Source: Azospirillum thermophilum
GTDB lineage: Bacteria; Pseudomonadota; Alphaproteobacteria; Azospirillales; Azospirillaceae
Length of the DNA: 64,000 nt
Assembly (NCBI RefSeq): GCF_003130795.1
Contig: NZ_CP029357.1
Location: 1 to 64,000 of the forward strand
Reading direction: 5' to 3'
Position 1 is the stretch's first letter. Each line of letters opens with the position of its first letter. Position numbers and translations under genes: made by a program. Shown here in pieces: positions 1 to 41,402 of the stretch. The notes beneath the pieces are model-generated. The model was not told the origin of the DNA. It worked only from the letters and a program-made list of their open reading frames with translations, and made no database searches.

Positions 1-535
1 CTTCTCGAAGCTGACCGGCGAACTGCGGACCCGGCTGGGGCTGCCGCCCACCCTCCGTTTCGCCGGCGAGGAGTGGGAGCTGTGGGACGAGGAGGAGTTG
101 GCGATCGACCTCGACGCCGGCATCCGCGGCCAATACACCAGGGACATCCTGCTGCCCGGCGAGAAGCTGTATTTCGGCGGCTCCCGCTACGGCCGCGGCT
201 ATTACTCCGGCGAGATCACCGGGGACCGCGGCTTCATCGCGGACCTGGAACTGGGCATCACCCGCAAGAACCTGCTGCTGTCCTTCGACCCCATCATCCG
301 CACCGACCTCACCCTGTACGGCTTCTACAACCAGGGCTTCGCCTACGACGTCGATCCCGATCATCCGCCGCGCCGGCGGGTGGAAAGCGCCGGCGGCGGC
401 CTGCGCTTCGACTTCGAACGGAAGCTGCGGATGGAGGTCGAATATGTCCGCCGGGCCCAGCGCCGTCCGGGCGGCGTCGGGACCGACCCGCTGGACCGCC
501 ACGCGGTCTACTGGCGGGTCGGCAGCCAGTTCTGA
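1..535 (+). CDS. TpsB/ShlB-family two-partner secretion pore, C-terminal part (cut by window edge)
   Basis: The frame is open from base 2 and ends at a TGA at 533-535, so only the last 177 residues are present. They alternate polar and hydrophobic residues as in a beta-barrel and end in a terminal aromatic (GSQF), typical of outer-membrane barrels. The segment GGSRYGRGYYSGEITGDRG matches the conserved haemolysin-activator region of ShlB/FhaC proteins. These are outer-membrane Omp85-type pores that export a TpsA partner. The next gene, 38 bases downstream on the same strand, is such a partner, which supports the call. The POTRA domains and signal peptide lie outside the window. Confidence 0.85.
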   Translation, partial: FSKLTGELRTRLGLPPTLRFAGEEWELWDEEELAIDLDAGIRGQYTRDILLPGEKLYFGGSRYGRGYYSGEITGDRGFIADLELGITRKNLLLSFDPIIRTDLTLYGFYNQGFAYDVDPDHPPRRRVESAGGGLRFDFERKLRMEVEYVRRAQRRPGGVGTDPLDRHAVYWRVGSQF

Positions 536-572
536 ATAAGGCCATTTCCAGGAAGAGAGGGGCTTGTCGATC

Positions 573-3500
573 ATGAAGGCCGGCATCGGAACCCGCGGAA
601 AGAAGCGCCGGAAGGGCGGCGCGGGCCGCACCAGCATCTCCGGACGCAACCCCGTCGCCGCGGGCGTGACCGTGACGCTGGTGATCGTGACGCTCGCCCC
701 CGATGCGCTCGCCAATCCGCAGAACGGCCAGGTGGTGGCGGGACAGGCGACCATCTCGTCCTCCGGCACGCGGCTGGAGGTCCGGCAGTCGACCGAGCAG
801 GCGATCGTCAACTGGCACAGCTTCAGCATCGGACCCGGCGAACATACCCATTTCCAGCAGCCGTCCGCGGCCTCGACGACGCTGAACCGGGTGACGGGGC
901 CGGACCCGTCGTCGATCGCCGGGAGGATGTCGGCGAACGGACGGGTGATCCTGGTCAATCCCAGCGGGATCGCCTTCAGCCGGGGCGCGCAGGTCGACGT
1001 CAACAGCCTGATCGCCACCACCGCCGACATCGCCAACCGCGACTTCATGGAAGGCCGGCTGCGCTTCGACCGTGCGTCGACCAAGCCCGGGGCCGCCGTG
1101 AGCAACGAGGGCGAAATCACCGTGCAGGAGGCCGGCCTGGCGGCGCTGGTCGCCCCCTCGGTCGCCAATTCCGGCACCATCAACGCCAGGCTCGGCAAGG
1201 TCGTGCTGGGCGGGGCGGAGGCCTTCGTGCTCGACCTGCACGGCGACGGCCTGATCTCCTTCCAGATCGTGGAGCCCGCGTCTCCGGACGCGGGCGGTGC
1301 GGCGGGACGGCGCTCCGCGTCCAACAGCGGTACGATCCGCGCCGACGGCGGATTGGTTGAAATCACTGCCGCCGACGCCCGCGGCGTGGTCGACGGCGTG
1401 GTCAACATGACGGGCGTGGTGTCCGCCCGCACGGTCCACCGGACGGGTGGCAAGGTGGTGATCGGCGGCGGGCGCACCGGCTCCGTCACGGTCGACGGGC
1501 GGGTCGACGTGTCGGGCGCCGCGCCGGGACAGACAGGCGGCTCGGTCGCCGTCCTGGGGCAGGACGTCCGGCTCGGCCCGGCGGCGCGGATCGACGCGTC
1601 CGGTCAGGCCGGTGGCGGACGCGTCGAGGTGGGCGGCAGCCTGCAGGGCCGCGGGCCGCAGCCGAACGCCAGGCGGACGCGCGTCGACAGTGGTGCCAGG
1701 ATCACGGCCGACGCGACCGGCTCCGGCAATGGTGGCACGGCGATCGTCTGGGCCGACGAATCGACCTGGTTCGCCGGCGCCATCTCCGCCCGCGGCGGCA
1801 CCGCCGGGGGCAACGGCGGCTTGGTCGAGGTTTCGGGCAAGCAGCAGCTGGTCTTCCGCGGCACCGTCGACACGCTGGCACCGGCGGGCCGCGCCGGCAC
1901 CACGCTGCTCGACCCCGTGGACATCGTGATCGCCTCGGCCGCGGTGAGCGACGACAGCCTGCTGGCGGGGGACGGCGTGCTTCACGGCGATACGATCTCC
2001 GGAGGCACCGCCACCTTCACGCCGACGGCGCTGGCGGGGCTGACCGGCGACGTCGTGCTGCAGGCCGCGCGTGACATCACCGTCACCGATCCGGTCACCT
2101 TCGGGGCGGGCGCAACCTCGGCCTCGCTGCAGGCCGGGCGCACCCTGTCCGTGAACGCGGCGGTCCAGACGACGGGCGGCGCCCGTCTCGACCTGCTGGC
2201 CGGCCGCAACTTCGATCCCGCCTATGGCGGTACGGCGGGAGCGCTGGTCACCACCGCGGCGGTCGGCGGCGGCGGGACCGGTGCCATCAGCTTCGCCGCC
2301 GGCACCGGCGGCATCACGCTGGGCGGCAACGTCACTGCCGCCGGAAGCATCTCCTTCACCCAGCCGGTGACGTTGGGTGGAACGGTGACGATCGACACGA
2401 CCAATGGCGGCGCTGCGCCGGCCGGGGGCGCGGTGCAGTTCTCCGGCGCGCTCGACGGCAACGGCGCCGGCCTGCGGATCGACGCCGGCAACGGCGGCGC
2501 GCTCTCCGTCGCCGGTGCGGCGAGCAACCTCGCCGGCCTGACGCTCACCGGCGGCGGCACGGCGAACTTCCAGGGCAGCCTGTCCATCAATGCCGGCGGG
2601 GCGCTGGACCTGTCGGGCAAGACGGGGGGAAGCGTGACGGTGCACGGCGCGCTCGCCACGCCGGACCTGACCACCTCGGGCAACGGCTATTCGGTGGCGC
2701 TGCTCGGCGGCGGCACGGTCGACAACGCCGTCACCTTCCTCAACACCGGCACCGTCACGCTGGGCAACGAAGCGACCGACACGCTGCGCTTCACCGGCGG
2801 CGTCACGGCGACGGCACCGTCGTCGAAGGTTCTGGCGGGGCAGGTCCAGACGACCAACACCGCCATCGACTTCGGCACCAGCCCGACCCGGCTGACCGCC
2901 GATACCGTGCTCAGCTCCGGTTCCGGAGCCGTCTCCCTCGCCGCGGTGACGGCGGAGACCGACGGCGGCGCCGGGCTGACGGTCACGGGTTCCGGCACGA
3001 CCAGCTTCAACGGCGCGGTCGGTGGGGCGGCGGGCGGCCCGAACCGGCTGTCGGCGCTGACGAGCAACGGCGGCGGCACCACCGTGCTCAGCGGCGACTC
3101 GGTGCACACCACCGGCAACCAGCTCTACGACGACGCGGTCCGGCTGGGCAGCGACATGACGCTGAGCGGGGTGGACGTCACCTTCTCCAGTACCGTCGAC
3201 TCGGTCAGCAGCACGCCCCCGGCACCCAGGGCGCTGGTGGTAAGCGGCAGCGGCATCACCAGCTTCAACGGCGCGGTGGGCGGCACGAACCCGCTGTCCC
3301 GGCTGACGCTCACCGGCGGCGGCACGGCGAACTTCCAGGGCAGCCTGTCCATCAATGCCGGCGGGGCACTGGACCTGTCGGGCAAGACGGGGGGAAGCGT
3401 GACGGTGCACGGCGCGCTTGCCACGCCGGACCTGACCACCTCGGGCAACGGCTATTCGGTGGCGCTGCTCGGTGGCGGCACGGTCGACAACGCCGTCACC

Positions 3501-6500
3501 TTCCTCAACACCGGCACCGTCACGCTGGGCAACGAAGCGACCGACACGCTGCGCTTCACCGGCGGCGTCACGGCGACGGCACCGTCGTCGAAGGTTCTGG
3601 CGGGGCAGGTCCAGACGACCAACACCGCCATCGACTTCGGCACCAGCCCGACCCGGCTGACCGCCGATACCGTGCTCAGCTCCGGTTCCGGAGCCGTCTC
3701 CCTCGCCGCGGTGACGGCGGAGACCGACGGCGGCGCCGGGCTGACGGTCACGGGTTCCGGCACGACCAGCTTCAACGGCGCGGTCGGTGGGGCGGCGGGC
3801 GGCCCGAACCGGCTGTCGGCGCTGACGAGCAACGGCGGCGGCACCACCGTGCTCAGCGGCGACTCGGTGCACACCACCGGCAACCAGCTCTACGACGACG
3901 CGGTCCGGCTGGGCAGCGACATGACGCTGAGCGGGGTGGACGTCACCTTCTCCAGTACCGTCGACTCGGTCAGCAGCACGCCCCCGGCACCCAGGGCGCT
4001 GGTGGTAAGCGGCAGCGGCATCACCAGCTTCAACGGCGCGGTGGGCGGCACGAACCCGCTGTCCCGGCTGACGCTCACCGGCGGCGGCACGGCGAACTTC
4101 CAGGGCAGCCTGTCCATCAATGCCGGCGGGGCGCTGGACCTGTCGGGCAAGACGGGGGGAAGCGTGACGGTGCACGGCGCGCTCGCCACGCCGGACCTGA
4201 CCACCTCGGGCAACGGCTATTCGGTGGCGCTGCTCGGTGGCGGCACGGTCGACAACGCCGTCACCTTCCTCAACACCGGCACCGTCACGCTGGGCAACGA
4301 AGCGACCGACACGCTGCGCTTCACCGGCGGCGTCACGGCGACGGCACCGTCGTCGAAGGTTCTGGCGGGGCAGGTCCAGACGACCAACACCGCCATCGAC
4401 TTCGGCACCAGCCCGACCCGGCTGACCGCCGATACCGTGCTCAGCTCCGGTTCCGGAGCCGTCTCCCTCGCCGCGGTGACGGCGGAGACCGACGGCGGCG
4501 CCGGGCTGACGGTCACGGGTTCCGGCACGACCAGCTTCAACGGCGCGGTCGGTGGGGCGGCGGGCGGCCCGAACCGGCTGTCGGCGCTGACGAGCAACGG
4601 CGGCGGCACCACCGTGCTCAGCGGCGACTCGGTGCACACCACCGGCAACCAGCTCTACGACGACGCGGTCCGGCTGGGCAGCGACATGACGCTGAGCGGG
4701 GTGGACGTCACCTTCTCCAGTACCGTCGACTCGGTCGACACCACGGCCAGGGCGCTGGTGGCGAGCGGCAGCGGCACCACCAGCTTCAAGGGCGCGGTGG
4801 GCGGTGCTGATGCGCTGTCGGCGCTGACGAGCGACAACGGCGGCACCACCGTGCTGAGCGGCGTCTCGGTGCACACCACCGGCAACCAGTCCTACAACGA
4901 CGCGGTGACGCTGAAGACGAGCTCCACGCTGACCTCCACGGCCAATGGACGGATCTCCTTCGGCGGGACGGTCGATCCGGAGTCCGACCTCGCGGCCGGC
5001 CTGGCGCTCGTCACCGGGGGCGACGTCGCGTTCACGGGGGCGCTCGGCAGCGCTTATCGCCTGGGGGCGTTGAGCGTCACCGGCGCCTACAACCTGTCGG
5101 CAGGCTCCTCCATCCGGGCGGCCAGCCTGTCTCACAGCGGCGGCGGCGGGACCAGCAACTTTGTCGGGTCGCTGGACACGAACGCTTCGCCCGGCATCTC
5201 GATCGTCAACGGCGGCGTCAGCATCGGCGGTCCGGTGAGGACCGGAAGCAACAACCTGGTCATTGCTGCCAGCGGCACGGGCCCGCTGGTCCTCGGCACC
5301 AGTTACGACGCCGGAACCGCGACCGCGCAGTTCGTCAGCGGCGGGCTCATCACGCAGACCGGCGGCACCATCACCGCCGGCACCCTGACCGGTTCGGCCG
5401 GAGGGTCCGCCAGCCTGACCCGGGCCAACAGCGTGACGACCCTCGGCGGCTTCACCACCGGCAGCGGCGGGTTCGCCTTCACCAACGCCTCCTCCCTGGC
5501 GGTATCCGGACCGGTCACGGCCGGCGGGGACCTGTCGCTGGTGGTTTCCAGCGCGGATGGAACACTGACTCTCGGCGGCGGCCTGTCGGCGGCCGGCCAT
5601 GCGATCGGCCTGAAGGCGGGCGGATCGATCTCCCAGGCCACCGGCAGCGCCGCCGCCGCCCTGACCGCGCAGACGCTGCTGGTGAGGGCGGGCGCCGGCG
5701 GCAGCGGTTCGGCGGAGCTGACGAACCGCTCCAACGCCATCGCCTCGGCCATCGCCGGGAGCGCGGCGGGCTCCTTCGACCTTGCCAGCAGGGGCACCCT
5801 GACGCTCGGCTCGCTGTCGGCGGTGGGAGCGGTCGAAGGAACGGCCGGACTGGCGGCGACCGGCAGCGGCGGAACCGTCCGCCTGCAGAGCGAGACCGGC
5901 GACGTCGTCCAGGCGGGCGGCGCCCCGATCACGGCGACCACCCTGCTCGTCCATGCCGGCCGGTCGTCGGGCAGCGGCAGCGTCCTGCTGGCCGACACCG
6001 GCAACCGGGTGTCGGGCGGCGTGGCGGGCAGCGCCGGCCAGAGCGGCGGCGGCTTCACCTTCACCAACGTCTCCGGCATCACCGTCGCCGACGACCGCAC
6101 CGTGACGGGCGCCGGCACCATCACGGCGCAGGCCGGCATCGTCGCAGCGGGATGGGACGGCGCCATCCGGCTTCGGACCCTGACCGGTGACATCACCCAG
6201 CAGGCGCAGGCCCCCCTGCGCACCACCATGGCGGATCTGCGGGCGGGGCTCTCCGGCGCTGGCTCGGTCGCGCTGGTCCGGGCGGCGAACATGGTCGGCG
6301 AACTTTCGGGGAGCGCCACGGGGAGCTTCGCGCTGTCCACCGGTTCCGCCCTGCGGATCACCGGCACCGGACTTGCCGCCGGCACGACCGCCCACCTGCA
6401 GGCGCAGGGCGGCGACCTGATCCAGGCGGCGGGGGCGAACCTTACGGCGCCGAAGCTGCTGGCGCAGGCGAGCGGCGGCATCGCGCTGATGAACCCGGGC

Positions 6501-7271
6501 AACGCGATCGGCACCGTCGCCGGGACGGCCGGAACGTCGATCAGGCTTCATGCCGGCGGCGACCTGACCGTCGGCAGCGTCGCGAGCCTCACGACCACCG
6601 AGGAGATCAAGGGGCTGACCGCCGCGGGCGACCTCGCCGAGATCAGGGTCGGGCGGCAAGGTGCCGGAAGCCTGACGCTGGACCAGCCGGTGCTGGCGAC
6701 CGACAAGACCTTCCTGCAGGCCCGCGGGGCCGTGACGGTGTCCCGCCCCGGCCGCTTCACCTCAAAGACGGTGGTGATCGACACCACCGACGACGCATCC
6801 TTCGGGCCGGGCGACTTCGCCGCCGGCGACGCGTCGCCGGACTTCCTGAAGCTCGCGAAGCGGCGGCCGGCACTGAACGGCAATATCGCACTGGGCGAGA
6901 CCTATGCGGGGAATTCGGAGTTCCGCCTGTTCGCAGGCAGCGGGACGATCACAGGCACCATCCATGCCAAGGGCCTGGGCGTCGCAGGCGTCGGCGGATC
7001 GGCAAGCCTGTTCGGCACGGTCGGCGGACGCCCCGGCACGGCCGCGGCGCAGCTGGTCTTCAAGCAGCTGCCCCGCGAGAACGCGTACAAGTTCAACAAC
7101 TGCGCGATCGGCGGCGTCACCTGCGTCGTGCTGCCGCCCTTCGAACCGGTGCGCCCGGAGCCGACCCTCGCCGGCCCCCTCTTCCACCAGGTCTTTCCTC
7201 CGGCCGATCCGATCAGGGACAACCTGATCAACACCGGCAACGAAGACTTCATCCGCAGATGGACGAAATGA
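573..7271 (+). CDS. Giant TpsA-type filamentous haemagglutinin/adhesin exoprotein
   Basis: A 2232-residue protein with a long basic N-terminus and hydrophobic stretch ending in ALA-NPQNG near residue 47, an extended Sec signal. Residues about 48-280 are the TPS secretion domain, with an NRV motif, VNPSGI (a variant of the family NPNGI motif) and a beta-helix pattern. The rest is Gly/Thr/Ser/Ala-rich beta-helix, including the 255-residue repeats annotated separately. The C-terminus has a small paired-Cys motif (NNCAIGGVTC). The ATG at 573 is chosen because AGGAAGAGAGG precedes it at good spacing; an in-frame TTG lies 9 bases upstream. It is exported by the adjacent TpsB. Its target or adhesive function is not evident. 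Confidence 0.9.
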   Translation: MKAGIGTRGKKRRKGGAGRTSISGRNPVAAGVTVTLVIVTLAPDALANPQNGQVVAGQATISSSGTRLEVRQSTEQAIVNWHSFSIGPGEHTHFQQPSAASTTLNRVTGPDPSSIAGRMSANGRVILVNPSGIAFSRGAQVDVNSLIATTADIANRDFMEGRLRFDRASTKPGAAVSNEGEITVQEAGLAALVAPSVANSGTINARLGKVVLGGAEAFVLDLHGDGLISFQIVEPASPDAGGAAGRRSASNSGTIRADGGLVEITAADARGVVDGVVNMTGVVSARTVHRTGGKVVIGGGRTGSVTVDGRVDVSGAAPGQTGGSVAVLGQDVRLGPAARIDASGQAGGGRVEVGGSLQGRGPQPNARRTRVDSGARITADATGSGNGGTAIVWADESTWFAGAISARGGTAGGNGGLVEVSGKQQLVFRGTVDTLAPAGRAGTTLLDPVDIVIASAAVSDDSLLAGDGVLHGDTISGGTATFTPTALAGLTGDVVLQAARDITVTDPVTFGAGATSASLQAGRTLSVNAAVQTTGGARLDLLAGRNFDPAYGGTAGALVTTAAVGGGGTGAISFAAGTGGITLGGNVTAAGSISFTQPVTLGGTVTIDTTNGGAAPAGGAVQFSGALDGNGAGLRIDAGNGGALSVAGAASNLAGLTLTGGGTANFQGSLSINAGGALDLSGKTGGSVTVHGALATPDLTTSGNGYSVALLGGGTVDNAVTFLNTGTVTLGNEATDTLRFTGGVTATAPSSKVLAGQVQTTNTAIDFGTSPTRLTADTVLSSGSGAVSLAAVTAETDGGAGLTVTGSGTTSFNGAVGGAAGGPNRLSALTSNGGGTTVLSGDSVHTTGNQLYDDAVRLGSDMTLSGVDVTFSSTVDSVSSTPPAPRALVVSGSGITSFNGAVGGTNPLSRLTLTGGGTANFQGSLSINAGGALDLSGKTGGSVTVHGALATPDLTTSGNGYSVALLGGGTVDNAVTFLNTGTVTLGNEATDTLRFTGGVTATAPSSKVLAGQVQTTNTAIDFGTSPTRLTADTVLSSGSGAVSLAAVTAETDGGAGLTVTGSGTTSFNGAVGGAAGGPNRLSALTSNGGGTTVLSGDSVHTTGNQLYDDAVRLGSDMTLSGVDVTFSSTVDSVSSTPPAPRALVVSGSGITSFNGAVGGTNPLSRLTLTGGGTANFQGSLSINAGGALDLSGKTGGSVTVHGALATPDLTTSGNGYSVALLGGGTVDNAVTFLNTGTVTLGNEATDTLRFTGGVTATAPSSKVLAGQVQTTNTAIDFGTSPTRLTADTVLSSGSGAVSLAAVTAETDGGAGLTVTGSGTTSFNGAVGGAAGGPNRLSALTSNGGGTTVLSGDSVHTTGNQLYDDAVRLGSDMTLSGVDVTFSSTVDSVDTTARALVASGSGTTSFKGAVGGADALSALTSDNGGTTVLSGVSVHTTGNQSYNDAVTLKTSSTLTSTANGRISFGGTVDPESDLAAGLALVTGGDVAFTGALGSAYRLGALSVTGAYNLSAGSSIRAASLSHSGGGGTSNFVGSLDTNASPGISIVNGGVSIGGPVRTGSNNLVIAASGTGPLVLGTSYDAGTATAQFVSGGLITQTGGTITAGTLTGSAGGSASLTRANSVTTLGGFTTGSGGFAFTNASSLAVSGPVTAGGDLSLVVSSADGTLTLGGGLSAAGHAIGLKAGGSISQATGSAAAALTAQTLLVRAGAGGSGSAELTNRSNAIASAIAGSAAGSFDLASRGTLTLGSLSAVGAVEGTAGLAATGSGGTVRLQSETGDVVQAGGAPITATTLLVHAGRSSGSGSVLLADTGNRVSGGVAGSAGQSGGGFTFTNVSGITVADDRTVTGAGTITAQAGIVAAGWDGAIRLRTLTGDITQQAQAPLRTTMADLRAGLSGAGSVALVRAANMVGELSGSATGSFALSTGSALRITGTGLAAGTTAHLQAQGGDLIQAAGANLTAPKLLAQASGGIALMNPGNAIGTVAGTAGTSIRLHAGGDLTVGSVASLTTTEEIKGLTAAGDLAEIRVGRQGAGSLTLDQPVLATDKTFLQARGAVTVSRPGRFTSKTVVIDTTDDASFGPGDFAAGDASPDFLKLAKRRPALNGNIALGETYAGNSEFRLFAGSGTITGTIHAKGLGVAGVGGSASLFGTVGGRPGTAAAQLVFKQLPRENAYKFNNCAIGGVTCVVLPPFEPVRPEPTLAGPLFHQVFPPADPIRDNLINTGNEDFIRRWTK
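2541..4736 (+). repeat. Three tandem 765-bp coding repeats in tpsA
   Basis: Units begin at 2541, 3306 and 4071, an exact period of 765 bases (255 codons) that keeps the frame. The third unit loses identity at about 4736, after DSV. The units are nearly identical at the DNA level; the few differences I found are single synonymous changes (for example gcg/gca Ala near 2610/3375 and ggc/ggt Gly near 2706/3471). A shorter, diverged partial unit follows to about 4980. Each unit encodes beta-helix sequence starting LTLTGGGTANFQG. Confidence 0.95.
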
Positions 7272-12575: not shown

Positions 12576-13211
12576 ATGCCGATCATTGCGATAGCCAGCA
12601 CCAAGGGCGGTCCTGGGAAGACGACGCTTGCGGTCTGTCTTGCCGACTGGTGGCGCCGCCAGGGAAAGCGTGTGACCTGCCTGGATACCGACCCCAACCG
12701 CAATCTGTTGAGCTGGATCGGCAAGCGGGCCGACGACGGGCTCGACTGCCGGGCGGTGGGCGAAGACGACGTGATCGCCGAGGCGCGGGCGGCGGCGAAG
12801 GTGGCGGACATCGTCATCATCGACGTCGCCGGCTTCCTGGCGCGGGGACTGCTCTATGCCGTCGGCGTGGCCGACGCCGTGCTGATCCCCTGCCGCCCGG
12901 CCAAGGGCGACGTCATCGAGGCCGGCCGCACCCAGCAGCAGATCAACAATGCCGCCGACCTCTCGGGCCGCAGCATCCCGCATGCCGCGGTGCTGACCCA
13001 GGTGAACCGCCGCGCCTCGGTCACCAGCCACAGCCGCGGGCAGCTCGCGGCGCTCGGGATCCCGACGCTGGCCGCCGACTTCCCGCTGCGCGCAATCTAT
13101 CAGGCGGCGTGGTACCAGGGGGCGACGCCGATCGAGCTTGGCGACAATTCCGCCACCACCGAGATCCAGGCGATCGCCGGCGAGGTCGAACAGATGCTGG
13201 AGGCCCGCTGA
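12576..13211 (+). CDS. parA: ParA-family partition ATPase
   Basis: 211 residues, the size of small type Ib-like ParA/MinD proteins without an N-terminal DNA-binding domain. The deviant Walker A motif STKGGPGKTTL is near residues 8-18, switch I CLDTDPN near 45-51 and Walker B-like DIVIIDVAG near 82-90. Such proteins position plasmid DNA by ATP-driven gradients on the nucleoid. The stop codon overlaps the ATG of the next gene (TGATG), so the two are co-translated as in partition operons. No classical ParB is present. It lies about 14 kb from repA on the same strand, consistent with one replicon's maintenance genes separated by cargo. Confidence 0.88.
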   Translation: MPIIAIASTKGGPGKTTLAVCLADWWRRQGKRVTCLDTDPNRNLLSWIGKRADDGLDCRAVGEDDVIAEARAAAKVADIVIIDVAGFLARGLLYAVGVADAVLIPCRPAKGDVIEAGRTQQQINNAADLSGRSIPHAAVLTQVNRRASVTSHSRGQLAALGIPTLAADFPLRAIYQAAWYQGATPIELGDNSATTEIQAIAGEVEQMLEAR

Positions 13212-13906
13212 TGGCCCGCAAACGGCAGCTCGAATCCATCGACGCCGACGAGCTGAAGCGCATGCTGGAGCCGGCGGCTGCCCGGCTTCCGTCTTCTGCC
13301 GCCCCGGGCGCCGCCCCAGGACCCGCACCGGCCGCCAAGCCGGCGCCCAGACCGGTGGTCGAGGCTGGGGGAATGAATGGCGAGGTGTTGCCGCCGCCGA
13401 CCCTGGCGCGGCCATCCGAACTCTTCGCACGCGAAGACTTTGCCAACGAGATCCGGCGGCTGTGGACACGCGGGCAGCAGACCTTCATCGAGGTCGGCCG
13501 CTATCTGATCCACGCGAAGGCGCGGCTGCCGCACGGCGAGTTCATGGCGATGGTGGCGGCCGATCTTCCCTTCCAGCATCCGACCGCCAACAAGCTGATG
13601 AGCGTGGCGCGGCTGGTCGATGGCGGCGAGGTCGATACCCGGCTGCTGCCGCCCTCCTCGGAGACCTGCTACCAGATCGCCACGCTGACCGATGACGAGC
13701 GCAAACGCGCCGTCCGGGAGGGGGTGATCCGGCCGGAGATGCGGCGCGAGGACATCGTCTCGTTCAAGAAGCGGCTGCGCGTGCGCACGCGGCCGGAGAC
13801 GGAGCAGAAGCGGGCGGAGCTGGCCCGCCTGCTCGCCGAACGTCAGCGCATCGAAACGCGGATCGCCGCCCTGCGCGCCGAGCTGGGAGACGAGGCGGAG
13901 GATTGA
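13211..13906 (+). CDS. DUF3102-like protein, probable ParA partner
   Basis: 231 residues. The start ATG overlaps the parA stop. After a Pro/Ala-rich linker (residues about 25-55), residues about 75-140 match the DUF3102 pattern found on plasmids (GRYLIHAKARLPHGEFMAMV, then FQHPTANKLMSVARL). This resembles the KfrA/ParB-adjacent helix-rich DNA-binding type proteins. The C-terminus is a charged helical segment (KRAELARLLAERQRIETR) likely to form a coiled coil. Because it replaces parB in the operon, it is the best candidate for the centromere-binding adaptor. That role is an inference from position and architecture, not from a recognised ParB motif. Confidence 0.7.
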   Translation: MARKRQLESIDADELKRMLEPAAARLPSSAAPGAAPGPAPAAKPAPRPVVEAGGMNGEVLPPPTLARPSELFAREDFANEIRRLWTRGQQTFIEVGRYLIHAKARLPHGEFMAMVAADLPFQHPTANKLMSVARLVDGGEVDTRLLPPSSETCYQIATLTDDERKRAVREGVIRPEMRREDIVSFKKRLRVRTRPETEQKRAELARLLAERQRIETRIAALRAELGDEAED

Positions 13907-26596: not shown

Positions 26597-26675
26597 TGTC
26601 AAGCCCAAACGGATATGACCCGGCGCGTCCGGTGGTCGCGGCATCCGGGCTTGACCGGCCCGCCCACCGGTGCCG

Positions 26676-26939
26676 TCGAGGTTTGACACACCGTCTGTCG
26701 AGGGATCGCCCACCGGTCCGCAGGTTTCGCACACCGCAGTCGAGGTTTCGCACACCGGCGACGGATATCCGCCCCTTCCGCCGTCGAGGTTTGACACACC
26801 ACCCCTTCCCGCCGCGGATATCACCCACCGGGACTCGAGGCTCCGGACACCGATCTTCGAGGTTCCACCCACCACGACTCGCGGCCCCGCACACCGGGAG
26901 TCGTGGCCCCACCCACCGGAATCGTGGCAAGTCCTTGAA
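26676..26939 (+). repeat. Iteron array of the replication origin (10 direct copies plus a degenerate one)
   Basis: The 17-bp unit TCGAGGTTTCGCACACC (variants allowed) begins at 26676, 26698, 26719, 26740, 26784, 26813, 26835, 26857, 26879 and 26901, with an eroded copy at 26923. Most starts are 21-22 bases apart, about two helical turns, so bound initiator molecules would sit on one face of the DNA. The better-conserved units are on the left; units toward repA are more degenerate. Confidence 0.92.
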
Positions 26940-27087
26940 CCGGCAGCCGGAATCCGGCCCGTAACCTCTTAATCCCCTAACTTTCTATCTTCCTAACAGG
27001 ATCCTCTTCCAGGACCTGAGGGAAACGGGAACCCGGTCCCGGCGCCGCATCGACCCGCCATGAGGCAGGCTTTCGGCCATCCGAGTC
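26940..27087. other. AT-richer unwinding candidate between iteron arrays
   Basis: The stretch 26960-27000 (CTTAATCCCCTAACTTTC and neighbours) is clearly lower in GC than the surroundings and lies between direct and inverted iterons, the expected place for the DNA-unwinding element of an iteron origin. I did not find a convincing DnaA box. Confidence 0.45.
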
Positions 27088-27223
27088 GGTGGGTGAGACC
27101 TCGAAACAGTCCAAACCGGCCCGTTTGAAACGGTGGGTAGAACCTCGACGGAACGGCTCTCCCTTCGGATCGTCCGGCATGGCAACGCTCACGCCGCCCC
27201 GCAGATGGTGGGCGGAACCTCGA
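27088..27223 (-). repeat. Three inverted iterons
   Basis: GGTGGGTGAGACCTCGA (27088-27104), GGTGGGTAGAACCTCGA (27132-27148) and GGTGGGCGGAACCTCGA (27207-27223) are reverse-orientation copies of the origin iteron with wider spacing (44 and 75 bases, the first being two 22-bp pitches). Confidence 0.88.
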
Positions 27224-27289
27224 CCTGTGAATCGCGGGACCGGAGTCGTGAGACGGCCGCCCGCCCGGATGAAAGCCGAATGGAAACCG

Positions 27290-27350
27290 TCGAGGTCTCA
27301 CCCACCTGTCTTCGAGGTTCCACCCACCGAACGTCGAGGTCACACACACC
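27290..27350 (+). repeat. Three direct iterons in the repA promoter region
   Basis: Units at 27290-27306, 27312-27328 and 27334-27350 (TCGAGGT + YYCACCCACC type) keep an exact 22-bp pitch and end 69 bases before the repA start. This position suits autorepression of repA by its own product. Confidence 0.9.
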
Positions 27351-27419
27351 AAACAGCCCCGCCCCTGGACGCTCCCGGTGCGACCCCCCATGATGGCGCG
27401 GTGTGGAGGGCGGTGATCG

Positions 27420-28502
27420 ATGGTGCGAGCGAGCAAGACGGATTCGGCGGCAGGTTCTGCGGAGAATCCCCGGAAACGGCCGGCCACGCGGCGGACGAAG
27501 GCGGACCGTGCCATGCCGCCGGCCGACCTGCTCCAGCCCGACCTGTTCGAGGAGGTGGCGGCCAAGAGCGCCGAACGGCCGGATTCGCCCCTGGTCGGAT
27601 CGGTCAAGAACGCCCGCACCATGATGGTCTGGAGCTTCTTCTCGCTGGGCAAGGAGCGGGTGACCGAACTGCCGGTCTACAATGACGGCCGGGTGTGGAT
27701 CGAGGTCACCGGGACGAAGCACGGCGTCCCGACCATGCTCGACAAGGAAGTGCTGATCTACATCGTCAGCCTGATCCAGGACAAGATGAACCGCGGCGAG
27801 GCGACGAGCCGCGTCGTCACCTTCAAGGCCAACGATTTCTTCGCGCGCAGCGGCCGCAAGCCGGCCGGCACCGCCTATGACTGGCTGGAGGAGGCGCTGG
27901 TCCGCCTCAAGGGCACGCTGATCCGCACCAACATCGAGGCCGGCGACGGCGTCAGCGGGGCTAACGAAGGCTTCTCGTGGATCGACCGCTACCGATTCCG
28001 CTACACCAAGTCGGAGACCGGCGAGAAGGTCGGCGACACGGTGGTCGTCATGATCTCCGACTGGCTCTACAGCCTCGTCACCGGCGGCAACGCGATCCTC
28101 ACCTACAATCCCAGCTATTTCGACCTGAAGCCGCTGGAACGGCGGCTCTACGAGGTCGCGCGCGCCCATTGCGGCAAGCAGAGCGGCTTCCGCATGAACA
28201 TCGAGAAGCTGCGGCTGCGCGCCGGGTCGGATGCTCCGCTGAAGGAATTCAAGCGGATGCTGACCAACATCGCGGCCAGCCGGAAATTCGCGCTGATCGA
28301 CTATGGCTTCATCATCCGCGATCCCCGCATCGCGCGGATGCCCGCCGCGGACCAGGCGGTGAAGCGCCGCACGCCGCTGAAGGCCTACGAGGTCTTCTTC
28401 TTCCCGCGCGACGGCGTCATGGCGGCAATGACGGAGGATCACAAGGGCGACAGCCCGCTGATCGACGAAGGCGACGTCTTTCCGACACCGGACGATTTCT
28501 GA
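27420..28502 (+). CDS. repA: Plasmid replication initiator (RPA/RepA family)
   Basis: 360 residues. After a basic, disordered N-terminus (about 50 residues, KRPATRRTK), the body matches the replication initiator protein A family found on alphaproteobacterial plasmids: MMVWSFFSLGKERVTELPVYNDG, then a winged-helix-like region (TFKANDFFARSGRKPAGTAYDWLEEALVRLKGTLIRTNI) and a second one (YFDLKPLERRLYEVARAHCGKQSGF). Such proteins bind iterons to open the origin. Iterons flank the gene on both sides, supporting the role directly. GGAGG lies 10 bases before the ATG. Confidence 0.93.
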   Translation: MVRASKTDSAAGSAENPRKRPATRRTKADRAMPPADLLQPDLFEEVAAKSAERPDSPLVGSVKNARTMMVWSFFSLGKERVTELPVYNDGRVWIEVTGTKHGVPTMLDKEVLIYIVSLIQDKMNRGEATSRVVTFKANDFFARSGRKPAGTAYDWLEEALVRLKGTLIRTNIEAGDGVSGANEGFSWIDRYRFRYTKSETGEKVGDTVVVMISDWLYSLVTGGNAILTYNPSYFDLKPLERRLYEVARAHCGKQSGFRMNIEKLRLRAGSDAPLKEFKRMLTNIAASRKFALIDYGFIIRDPRIARMPAADQAVKRRTPLKAYEVFFFPRDGVMAAMTEDHKGDSPLIDEGDVFPTPDDF

Positions 28503-28526
28503 TCCCGGCATTTCCCGATCCGGTGC

Positions 28527-28570
28527 GGTGGGCGAAACCTCGACCATTCCGACTCGAGGTTTCGCCCACC
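28527..28570. repeat. Perfect inverted iteron pair downstream of repA
   Basis: GGTGGGCGAAACCTCGA (28527-28543) and its exact reverse complement (28554-28570) flank a 10-base centre, 24 bases after the repA stop. It could be a terminator-like hairpin for repA, an initiator handcuffing site or both. It lies between the convergent repA and MFS genes. Confidence 0.9.
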
Positions 28571-28643
28571 GGACGGCCCGAACGGAAAGGGCCCGCCGGC
28601 ACGCCGCAGCGCAACCGGCAGGCCCCTTCCTGAAATCGGCGGG

Positions 28644-41300: not shown

Positions 41301-41402
41301 GGTGTGTGAAACCACGACGTGCCGCCGCCGCGACCGCGGTTTTGCTGGCTTTCGCCCCGCCGCGGAGGCCTTCGCGGGGCCTCCTGCGTGGTTTCACCCA
41401 CC
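41301..41402. repeat. Remote pair of iteron-like repeats in inverted orientation
   Basis: GGTGTGTGAAACCACGA at 41301-41317 and GCGTGGTTTCACCCACC at 41386-41402 resemble the replication iterons of the 27-kb origin (consensus GGTGGGTGAAACCTCGA and reverse). They lie in the 385-base gap (41261-41645) after the chemoreceptor gene. Between them is a GC-rich hairpin (GCCCCGC/GCGGGGC near 41354-41380) that could terminate that gene. The rest of the gap, 41450-41620, is AT-richer and probably carries the promoter of the next receptor; no gene is seen there. Confidence 0.6.

What the first reader, a model, noticed from the sequence alone, without database searches (positions are those of the whole stretch)
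26676..27350. Large iteron origin with 22-bp pitch in both orientations
At least 16 iteron copies (10 direct, 3 inverted, 3 direct) surround an AT-richer segment and lead into repA. The half-and-half orientation and the graded degeneracy toward repA suggest separate roles: opening, autorepression and copy control. This is strong evidence that the window belongs to a secondary replicon.
Basis: partly seen in the sequence, partly recalled or inferred. Interest (0 to 1): 0.7.

Follow-up and report, generated by a model that had tools for sequence, protein, structure and literature searches.

The report
Iteron replication origin with TAAC ladder
This looks like the start site for copying a 672,000-base secondary DNA circle in an Azospirillum-type soil bacterium; its protein-binding repeats and a neighbouring strand-opening ladder keep nearly the same spacing in related bacteria.

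Summary
26676-27350 carries a 17-bp iteron at ~22-bp pitch: an 11-slot direct array (nine clear, two degenerate), three inverted copies, three direct copies before repA (27420-28502). RepA is an RPA-family (PF10134) initiator whose predicted fold matches RctB, RepE and Pi. The contig (672 kb) is probably circular. "Graded degeneracy toward repA" is wrong: the six copies nearest repA are uniformly strong. Missed: inverted iteron pairs behind repA and at 41.3 kb.

The main new finding is in the "AT-richer segment": TAAC-like tetramers at exact 8-bp pitch (26962-26997), 44 bp from the long array. Of 70 RPA regions, 19 of 20 with RepA at least 47.8% identical score 14/20 or more, against 2 of 50 others (both bounds set after looking). 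Array-to-ladder spacing is nearly constant while iterons diverge. The cassette occurs in three arrangements around rep.

Best reading: an oriV where initiator on iterons opens the DUE and then holds the ladder as single strand, as RctB does on ATCA repeats. No binding or replication was tested; GC skew gives no support.

The parts
26676..26917 (+). Long iteron array, 11 slots at ~22-bp pitch (offsets 0,22,43,64,86,108,137,159,181,203,225); slots at 26762 and 26813 degenerate
   Evidence: L006 has the same offsets
26762..26778 (+). Non-iteron slot (-200 from the ladder); a DnaA box lies in this slot in L160, L037 and the R. marmotae plasmid (3 of 22 loci), only a 6/9 match here
26918..26961 (.). 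44-bp gap between the last iteron and the ladder; an ungapped stack of 15 loci keeps about this length
26962..26997 (+). Ladder of TAAC, TAAT, TAAC, TATC, TAAC at exact 8-bp pitch: predicted DNA unwinding element
   Evidence: 18 of 20 letters; shuffle maximum 13
27088..27104 (-). Inverted iteron facing the ladder
27132..27148 (-). Inverted iteron facing the ladder
27207..27223 (-). Inverted iteron facing the ladder
27290..27350 (+). Three rep-proximal iterons at 22-bp pitch, pointing at repA
27366..27394 (+). Candidate repA promoter (TGGACG, 17 bp, CATGAT), read by eye; weak
   Evidence: alignment, letters checked; the promoter scan found 0
27420..28502 (+). repA, 360-aa RPA-family (PF10134) replication initiator
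28523..28574 (.). Inverted pair of full-strength iterons (28527-28543 -, 28554-28570 +), 21-nt arms 95% complementary, just behind the repA stop
   Evidence: RNA fold z -5.5
41301..41402 (.). Satellite inverted pair of iteron-like sites (41301-41317 -, 41386-41402 +) between two chemoreceptor genes
12576..13211 (+). ParA/VirC1-like ATPase, candidate partition gene of this replicon
13211..13906 (+). DUF3102 (PF11300) protein overlapping the end of the parA-like gene; candidate partition partner. None of the genome's nine ParB_N matches lies on this contig

Best explanation
The segment is the theta-type origin (oriV) of a 672-kb secondary replicon, run by an RPA-family winged-helix initiator. 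Inferred mechanism: RepA monomers fill the 22-bp-pitch array; the array opens the DUE that starts 44 bp away; RepA (or RepA with DnaA) then holds one strand through the TAAC tetramers, one per 8 nt, so that helicase can load. Inverted iterons beyond the DUE face it and probably clamp or loop the origin. The rep-proximal iterons, which point at repA, probably serve autoregulation. The extra inverted pairs (behind repA, 41.3 kb) probably titrate RepA or pair with the origin. Shown here: sequence, predicted fold, spacing and their conservation. Inferred: all binding, opening and regulation.
Against: GC skew gives no origin signal: cumulative skew has its maximum, not minimum, at 26,641 in linear coordinates, and the half-circle contrast at 27 kb is about zero (-130 against extremes of +3686 and -3712); local contrasts are negative at five of six scales. 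No DnaA box within 1 mismatch near the window's ladder. L163 (48.0% identical), L167 and L168 (47.1 and 46.5%) score 13, at the null. The 14/20 and 47.8% bounds were chosen after seeing the scores. A four-unit TAAC pattern with one mismatch also occurs elsewhere: 12 of 385 genomes of the class (4 of the 12 are simple tandem repeats), and the same pattern read backwards hits more genomes than that. None of the genome's ParB_N proteins is on the contig.
Confidence: 0.85

Rival explanations
1. The repeats are only an operator and copy-control region of repA; replication starts elsewhere on the contig, or this is a relic origin.
For: No GC-skew signal here; initiator sites can also be operators (PMC11711613 passage on the 29-mer of rctB); the genome holds another RPA on C2.
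Against: The origin geometry is preserved between species with drifting spacers; ladder and array travel together even when they lie on the other side of rep (L007/L008); the RPA searches of the genome found no second RPA gene on C6. Initiators of other families on C6 were not searched for.
Confidence: 0.08
2. The TAAC ladder is an AT-rich accident or shared ancestry without function; only A+T richness matters for opening.
For: The ladder lies in the most AT-rich 50 bp of the 1,561-bp region; related loci share ancestry; six loci were used to discover the ladder.
Against: Of 29 regions fetched after discovery (L144-L172 without L161, which repeats L036, plus R. marmotae), 12 score at least 14, and of the 13 with RepA identity of 47.8% or more 12 do (seven of the 12 come from one genus). 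Six other pitches give at most 11-14 in the 70 regions. The four positions between tetramers are not conserved.
Confidence: 0.2
3. The inverted pair behind repA is a transcription terminator between the convergent repA and MFS genes, not a RepA site.
For: 21-nt arms with a 10-nt loop, RNA fold z -5.5, placed between convergent genes.
Against: Each arm is a full-strength iteron, 26.2 bits, and no T-run follows: the terminator scan found 0. Both roles may hold.
Confidence: 0.35

Closest known systems
Iteron plasmid origins (RK2/TrfA, F/RepE, R6K/Pi, P1, pPS10)
   Same: Winged-helix initiator, iterons next to a DUE with short repeats, 17-bp iterons as in RK2 (PMC4980987, passages); initiator fold matches RepE and Pi.
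   Different: More iterons than the up to five (RK2, P1) or seven (R6K) named in the passage; DUE repeats are 8-bp-pitched TAAC rather than the four 13-mers of RK2; inverted iterons face the DUE from the far side; initiator is RPA family.
Vibrio cholerae chromosome 2 ori2 / RctB
   Same: Best fold match of the initiator; regularly spaced iterons plus regularly spaced tetramers in the DUE (ATCA x6, PMC11711613, passages); sites outside the minimal origin (PMC6090056, passages).
   Different: Iteron length and sequence and tetramer sequence differ; 39-mer-like sites and crtS were not searched for.
Azospirillum brasilense MTCC4039 plasmid p3 (NZ_CP032349.1)
   Same: RepA 78-80% identical, same 11 slot offsets, same ladder (15/20), 3 inverted and 3 direct iterons.
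   Different: Spacers and gap lengths around the inverted group differ; ParA/ParB genes near repA there; the inverted pair behind repA is at best degenerate (15.4 and 11.2 bits).
Iteron plasmids of Paracoccus
   Same: Iterons upstream of rep, in some with an inverted partial iteron at the rep start (PMC3832669, passages).
   Different: The iteron origins in the passages have 2-5 repeats, and two plasmids have none; whether any of their Rep proteins is PF10134 was not checked.

Membership tests
RPA family (PF10134) | Profile match above the curated cut-off | tested here: met
   181.5 bits against 27
Two-winged-helix initiators (Rep_3/RctB type) | Shared fold over both winged-helix domains | tested here: met
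Two-winged-helix initiators (Rep_3/RctB type) | Sequence match to the Rep3_N or TrfA profile (not filed as Rep_3 by sequence) | tested here: not met
   only PF10134 for the window protein at E 0.001 and for P0002 at E 0.1; P0025 and P0055 do match Rep3_N
Iteron-type theta origin | Regularly spaced direct repeats next to an AT-rich DUE and a rep gene | tested here: met
Iteron-type theta origin | Initiator binds the repeats and the segment replicates autonomously | not testable with these tools
   needs binding and replication assays
Iteron-type theta origin | DnaA box in the origin (found in many such plasmids, not in all) | tested here: inconclusive
   none within 1 mismatch near the window's ladder; 10 in 15 loci against 3.2 expected; a box in the -200 slot in 3 of 22 loci
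RctB/ori2 chromid system | Regular tetramer repeats in the DUE bound as single strand | tested here: inconclusive
   regular TAAC ladder present; binding not testable
RctB/ori2 chromid system | crtS checkpoint on the main chromosome | not tested
   no search made for a crtS-like site
repABC replicon | ParA- and ParB-type genes in one operon with the initiator | tested here: not met
   none of nine ParB_N matches is on C6; the initiator is PF10134. PMC3899980 (passages) says the non-chromosomal replicons of the strains it studied have repABC/parAB-type systems
Chromid | Plasmid-type replication plus core genes and chromosome-like composition | tested here: inconclusive
   70.0% G+C of called bases and one tRNA-Gly on C6; 7.5 kb reads N; rRNA could not be judged; core genes and chromosome composition not surveyed

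The most novel reading that the evidence does not exclude
A clade of RPA-family replicons in Azospirillaceae and relatives uses one rigid origin cassette: a run of iterons at 22-bp pitch with a 28-30-bp step and a non-iteron slot that can hold a DnaA box, a gap of about 44 bp, then an 8-bp TAAC ladder that the initiator reads as single strand, with iterons facing it from beyond. The cassette has been inverted and moved around rep during evolution while its internal spacing stayed almost fixed, and it parallels the ATCA code of Vibrio chromosome 2, hinting that single-strand tetramer codes are a general feature of RctB-like initiators.
Probability: 0.5. Interest if true: 0.65.

Novelty: new variant of a known kind. 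Interest (0 to 1): 0.5.

Why it matters
Relatives of this RepA are encoded in 1070 of 72,556 plasmid records, and by 66 of 82 genomes of the family searched. A predicted origin core, with a sequence rule for its opening element in one clade, helps to locate these origins, shows that the cassette can be inverted or moved around rep, and offers a second natural system beside RctB for testing how an initiator holds an opened strand. L007/L008 give a natural separation of origin iterons from rep-proximal iterons.

Tried and rejected
GC skew as independent proof of the origin: no support. rRNA on the contig: the Rfam SSU search found none in the whole genome and rang in only 9 of 14 controls, and a universal 16S primer pattern found none, so it cannot be judged; C6 holds 7.5 kb of N at 492501-500000. 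The search for related loci in genome contigs found no relative. Single iteron-like sites at 319585, 359764 (about 3 kb from the point opposite the origin) and 479516 of C6 were not pursued; with the same matrix the A. brasilense replicon has 198567 (22.8 bits) and four weaker ones (13.7-16.4) outside its origin. The four-unit TAAC pattern as an origin finder: rejected; 12 of 385 genomes, 4 of them plain tandem repeats, and the backwards control hit more genomes. Most RPA regions under about 47.8% identity show no ladder (48 of 50 below 14). Ladder controls are first-order Markov resamplings of each region, not exact shuffles. No shuffled control was made for the count of inverted iterons beyond the ladder, and direct-sense copies are found there too, in 13 of 23 loci.

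Error found and corrected: searches took the first ~1,500 bases as upstream for genome-search loci whose match is on the minus strand, but those loci are not turned; one search established orientation and searches use it. seeds its matrix at the -61 register, so its core positions are not independent; one search is unseeded. Left out: L001, L003, L004 (repeats of the window or of L002), L005 (no RepA match), L035 (repeat of L006); L142 and L143 were used as one. Repeats kept among the 70: L036/L161, L031/L041, L040/L171, and the near-identical L007/L008.

Papers: passages only, no whole text, of PMC3832669, PMC13342612, PMC3899980, PMC3925955, PMC6090056, PMC4980987, PMC10797057, PMC11711613; all others only as search listings. 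In the listings of ten searches and these passages I saw no description of RPA-family iterons or of a TAAC ladder; the library lacks most subscription papers, and the paper I recalled on RctB and single-stranded DNA was not held.

Full report
Where it lies. The window is bases 1-64000 of contig C6 (672,413 bp) of a 6.78-Mb, 9-contig genome. The closest repA lies on G019:C5, which has the length and repA position of A. brasilense MTCC4039 plasmid p3, NZ_CP032349.1; the tool calls G019 the same genus as the window's genome. So the host is most likely an Azospirillum (inference). C6 is probably circular: a POTRA (ShlB-type) match lies within its last 1.3 kb and the C-terminal ShlB part of such a transporter in its first 535 bases; the short piece between matched no family. 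The ends do not overlap.

Observation. A 17-bp repeat, TCGAGGTTTCACMCACC, recurs at about 22-bp pitch: nine clear and two degenerate direct copies at 26676-26917, three inverted at 27088, 27132 and 27207, three direct at 27290, 27312 and 27334. In a scan of all C6, 15 of 22 hits over 13 bits fall in the stated interval; ten permuted matrices gave 0-15 over 13 and 0-1 over 20 bits.

Conserved spacing. L006 has the same offsets 0, 22, 43, 64, 86, 108, 137, 159, 181, 203, 225 for its array. Over these slots the 17-mers are 138 of 187 identical, the five bases after each 20 of 55 (summed from its table). The rep-proximal 22-bp trio is kept; the distances of the inverted trio are not (44 and 75 bp here, 52 and 51 there).

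TAAC ladder. The AT-rich stretch next to the array reads TAAC, TAAT, TAAC, TATC, TAAC at 26962, 26970, 26978, 26986, 26994. I noticed the 8-bp pitch in six loci (window, L006, L007, L036, L037, L038). With orientation corrected, 70 RPA regions were scored for five tetramers at 8-bp pitch, maximum 20 (recounted). Of 20 regions whose RepA is at least 47.8% identical to the window's, 19 score 14-20 (L163 scores 13). Of the other 50, two score at least 14 (L037 16, L044 14) and six score 13. Twenty resamplings per region peaked at 11-15; six other pitches peaked at 11-14. Both bounds (14 and 47.8%) were set after seeing the scores. Of 29 regions fetched after the ladder was noticed, 12 score at least 14; of the 13 among them at 47.8% or more, 12 do, seven of these being one genus. 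Over 15 loci the letters T, A, A, C are present at 72, 84, 80 and 77% of units, and no letter exceeds 44% at the four spacer positions (these loci were chosen by the ladder or its neighbourhood).

Cassette geometry. The stack of 15 loci from last iteron to ladder needs no gaps. Inverted iterons lie 50-350 bp beyond the ladder in 18 of 23 loci, none in L160, L161, L163, L167, L168; direct-sense copies lie there in 13 of 23. The slot near -200 holds no good iteron in the window or L006; a DnaA box sits there in L160 (9/9), the R. marmotae plasmid (9/9) and L037 (8/9), 3 of 22 loci; the window has 6/9.

Arrangements. Relative to rep the cassette has three forms: upstream with the ladder in rep sense (window, L006); upstream in the opposite sense (the other ladder-bearing loci of the clade); and behind the rep gene (L007, L008). 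In L007 and L008 a group of four rep-sense and two opposite iterons stays at the rep start.

Extra sites. A full-strength inverted pair follows the repA stop (28527 -, 28554 +) and can fold into a strong hairpin without a T-run. L006 has only a weak counterpart (15.4 and 11.2 bits with its own matrix). A second pair lies at 41301/41386 between two chemoreceptor genes. Titration or pairing with the origin is my inference from known iteron systems.

Partition. A ParA-like ATPase at 12576-13211, overlapped by a DUF3102 protein at 13211-13906, is the only candidate partition pair I saw; none of the genome's nine ParB_N matches lies on C6.

Comparison and novelty. In kind this is an iteron origin. 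The RctB precedent is close: iterons beside a DUE with six regularly spaced ATCA tetramers engaged as single strand (PMC11711613, passages); RK2 has four 13-mers (PMC4980987, passages). I saw no print of RPA-family iterons or this ladder in ten searches of an open library (named under Tried and rejected), which is not proof of absence. I rate it a new variant of a known kind.

Noticed in passing
window 41301-41402: Inverted pair of iteron-like sites between two methyl-accepting chemotaxis genes, 14 kb from the origin.
   Followed up: partly
G000:C6 359764: A single strong iteron-like site (24.4 bits) about 3 kb from the point opposite the origin on the 672-kb circle; may be chance.
   Followed up: no
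L010, L012, L015, L016, L020, L025-L028, L031, L032, L034, L039, L041: Another RPA group in Azospirillum (RepA about 38-46% identical) shows recurring repeat spacings of 33, then about 66, 89-110 and 53-62 bp upstream of rep instead of 22-bp arrays and TAAC ladders (plus-strand loci only).
   Followed up: no
window 12576-13906: ParA-like ATPase with an overlapping DUF3102 gene and no ParB_N match on the contig: a possible unusual partition pair.
   Followed up: partly
window 2-7271 and the end of C6 (L078): Two-partner-secretion transporter split over the contig ends with frame shifts, followed by a large exoprotein-like gene with internal repeats 765 bp apart.
   Followed up: partly
window 26640-27440: GANTC sites are dense (8 in 801 bp; 80 in the 64-kb window), as if cell-cycle methylation could act here.
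   Followed up: no
G036:C4 315538 (L115): TAAC ladder-like run (17 of 20) in an intergenic spot of another same-genus genome; I recognised no RPA gene by eye among the ORFs of the 3-kb locus.
   Followed up: partly
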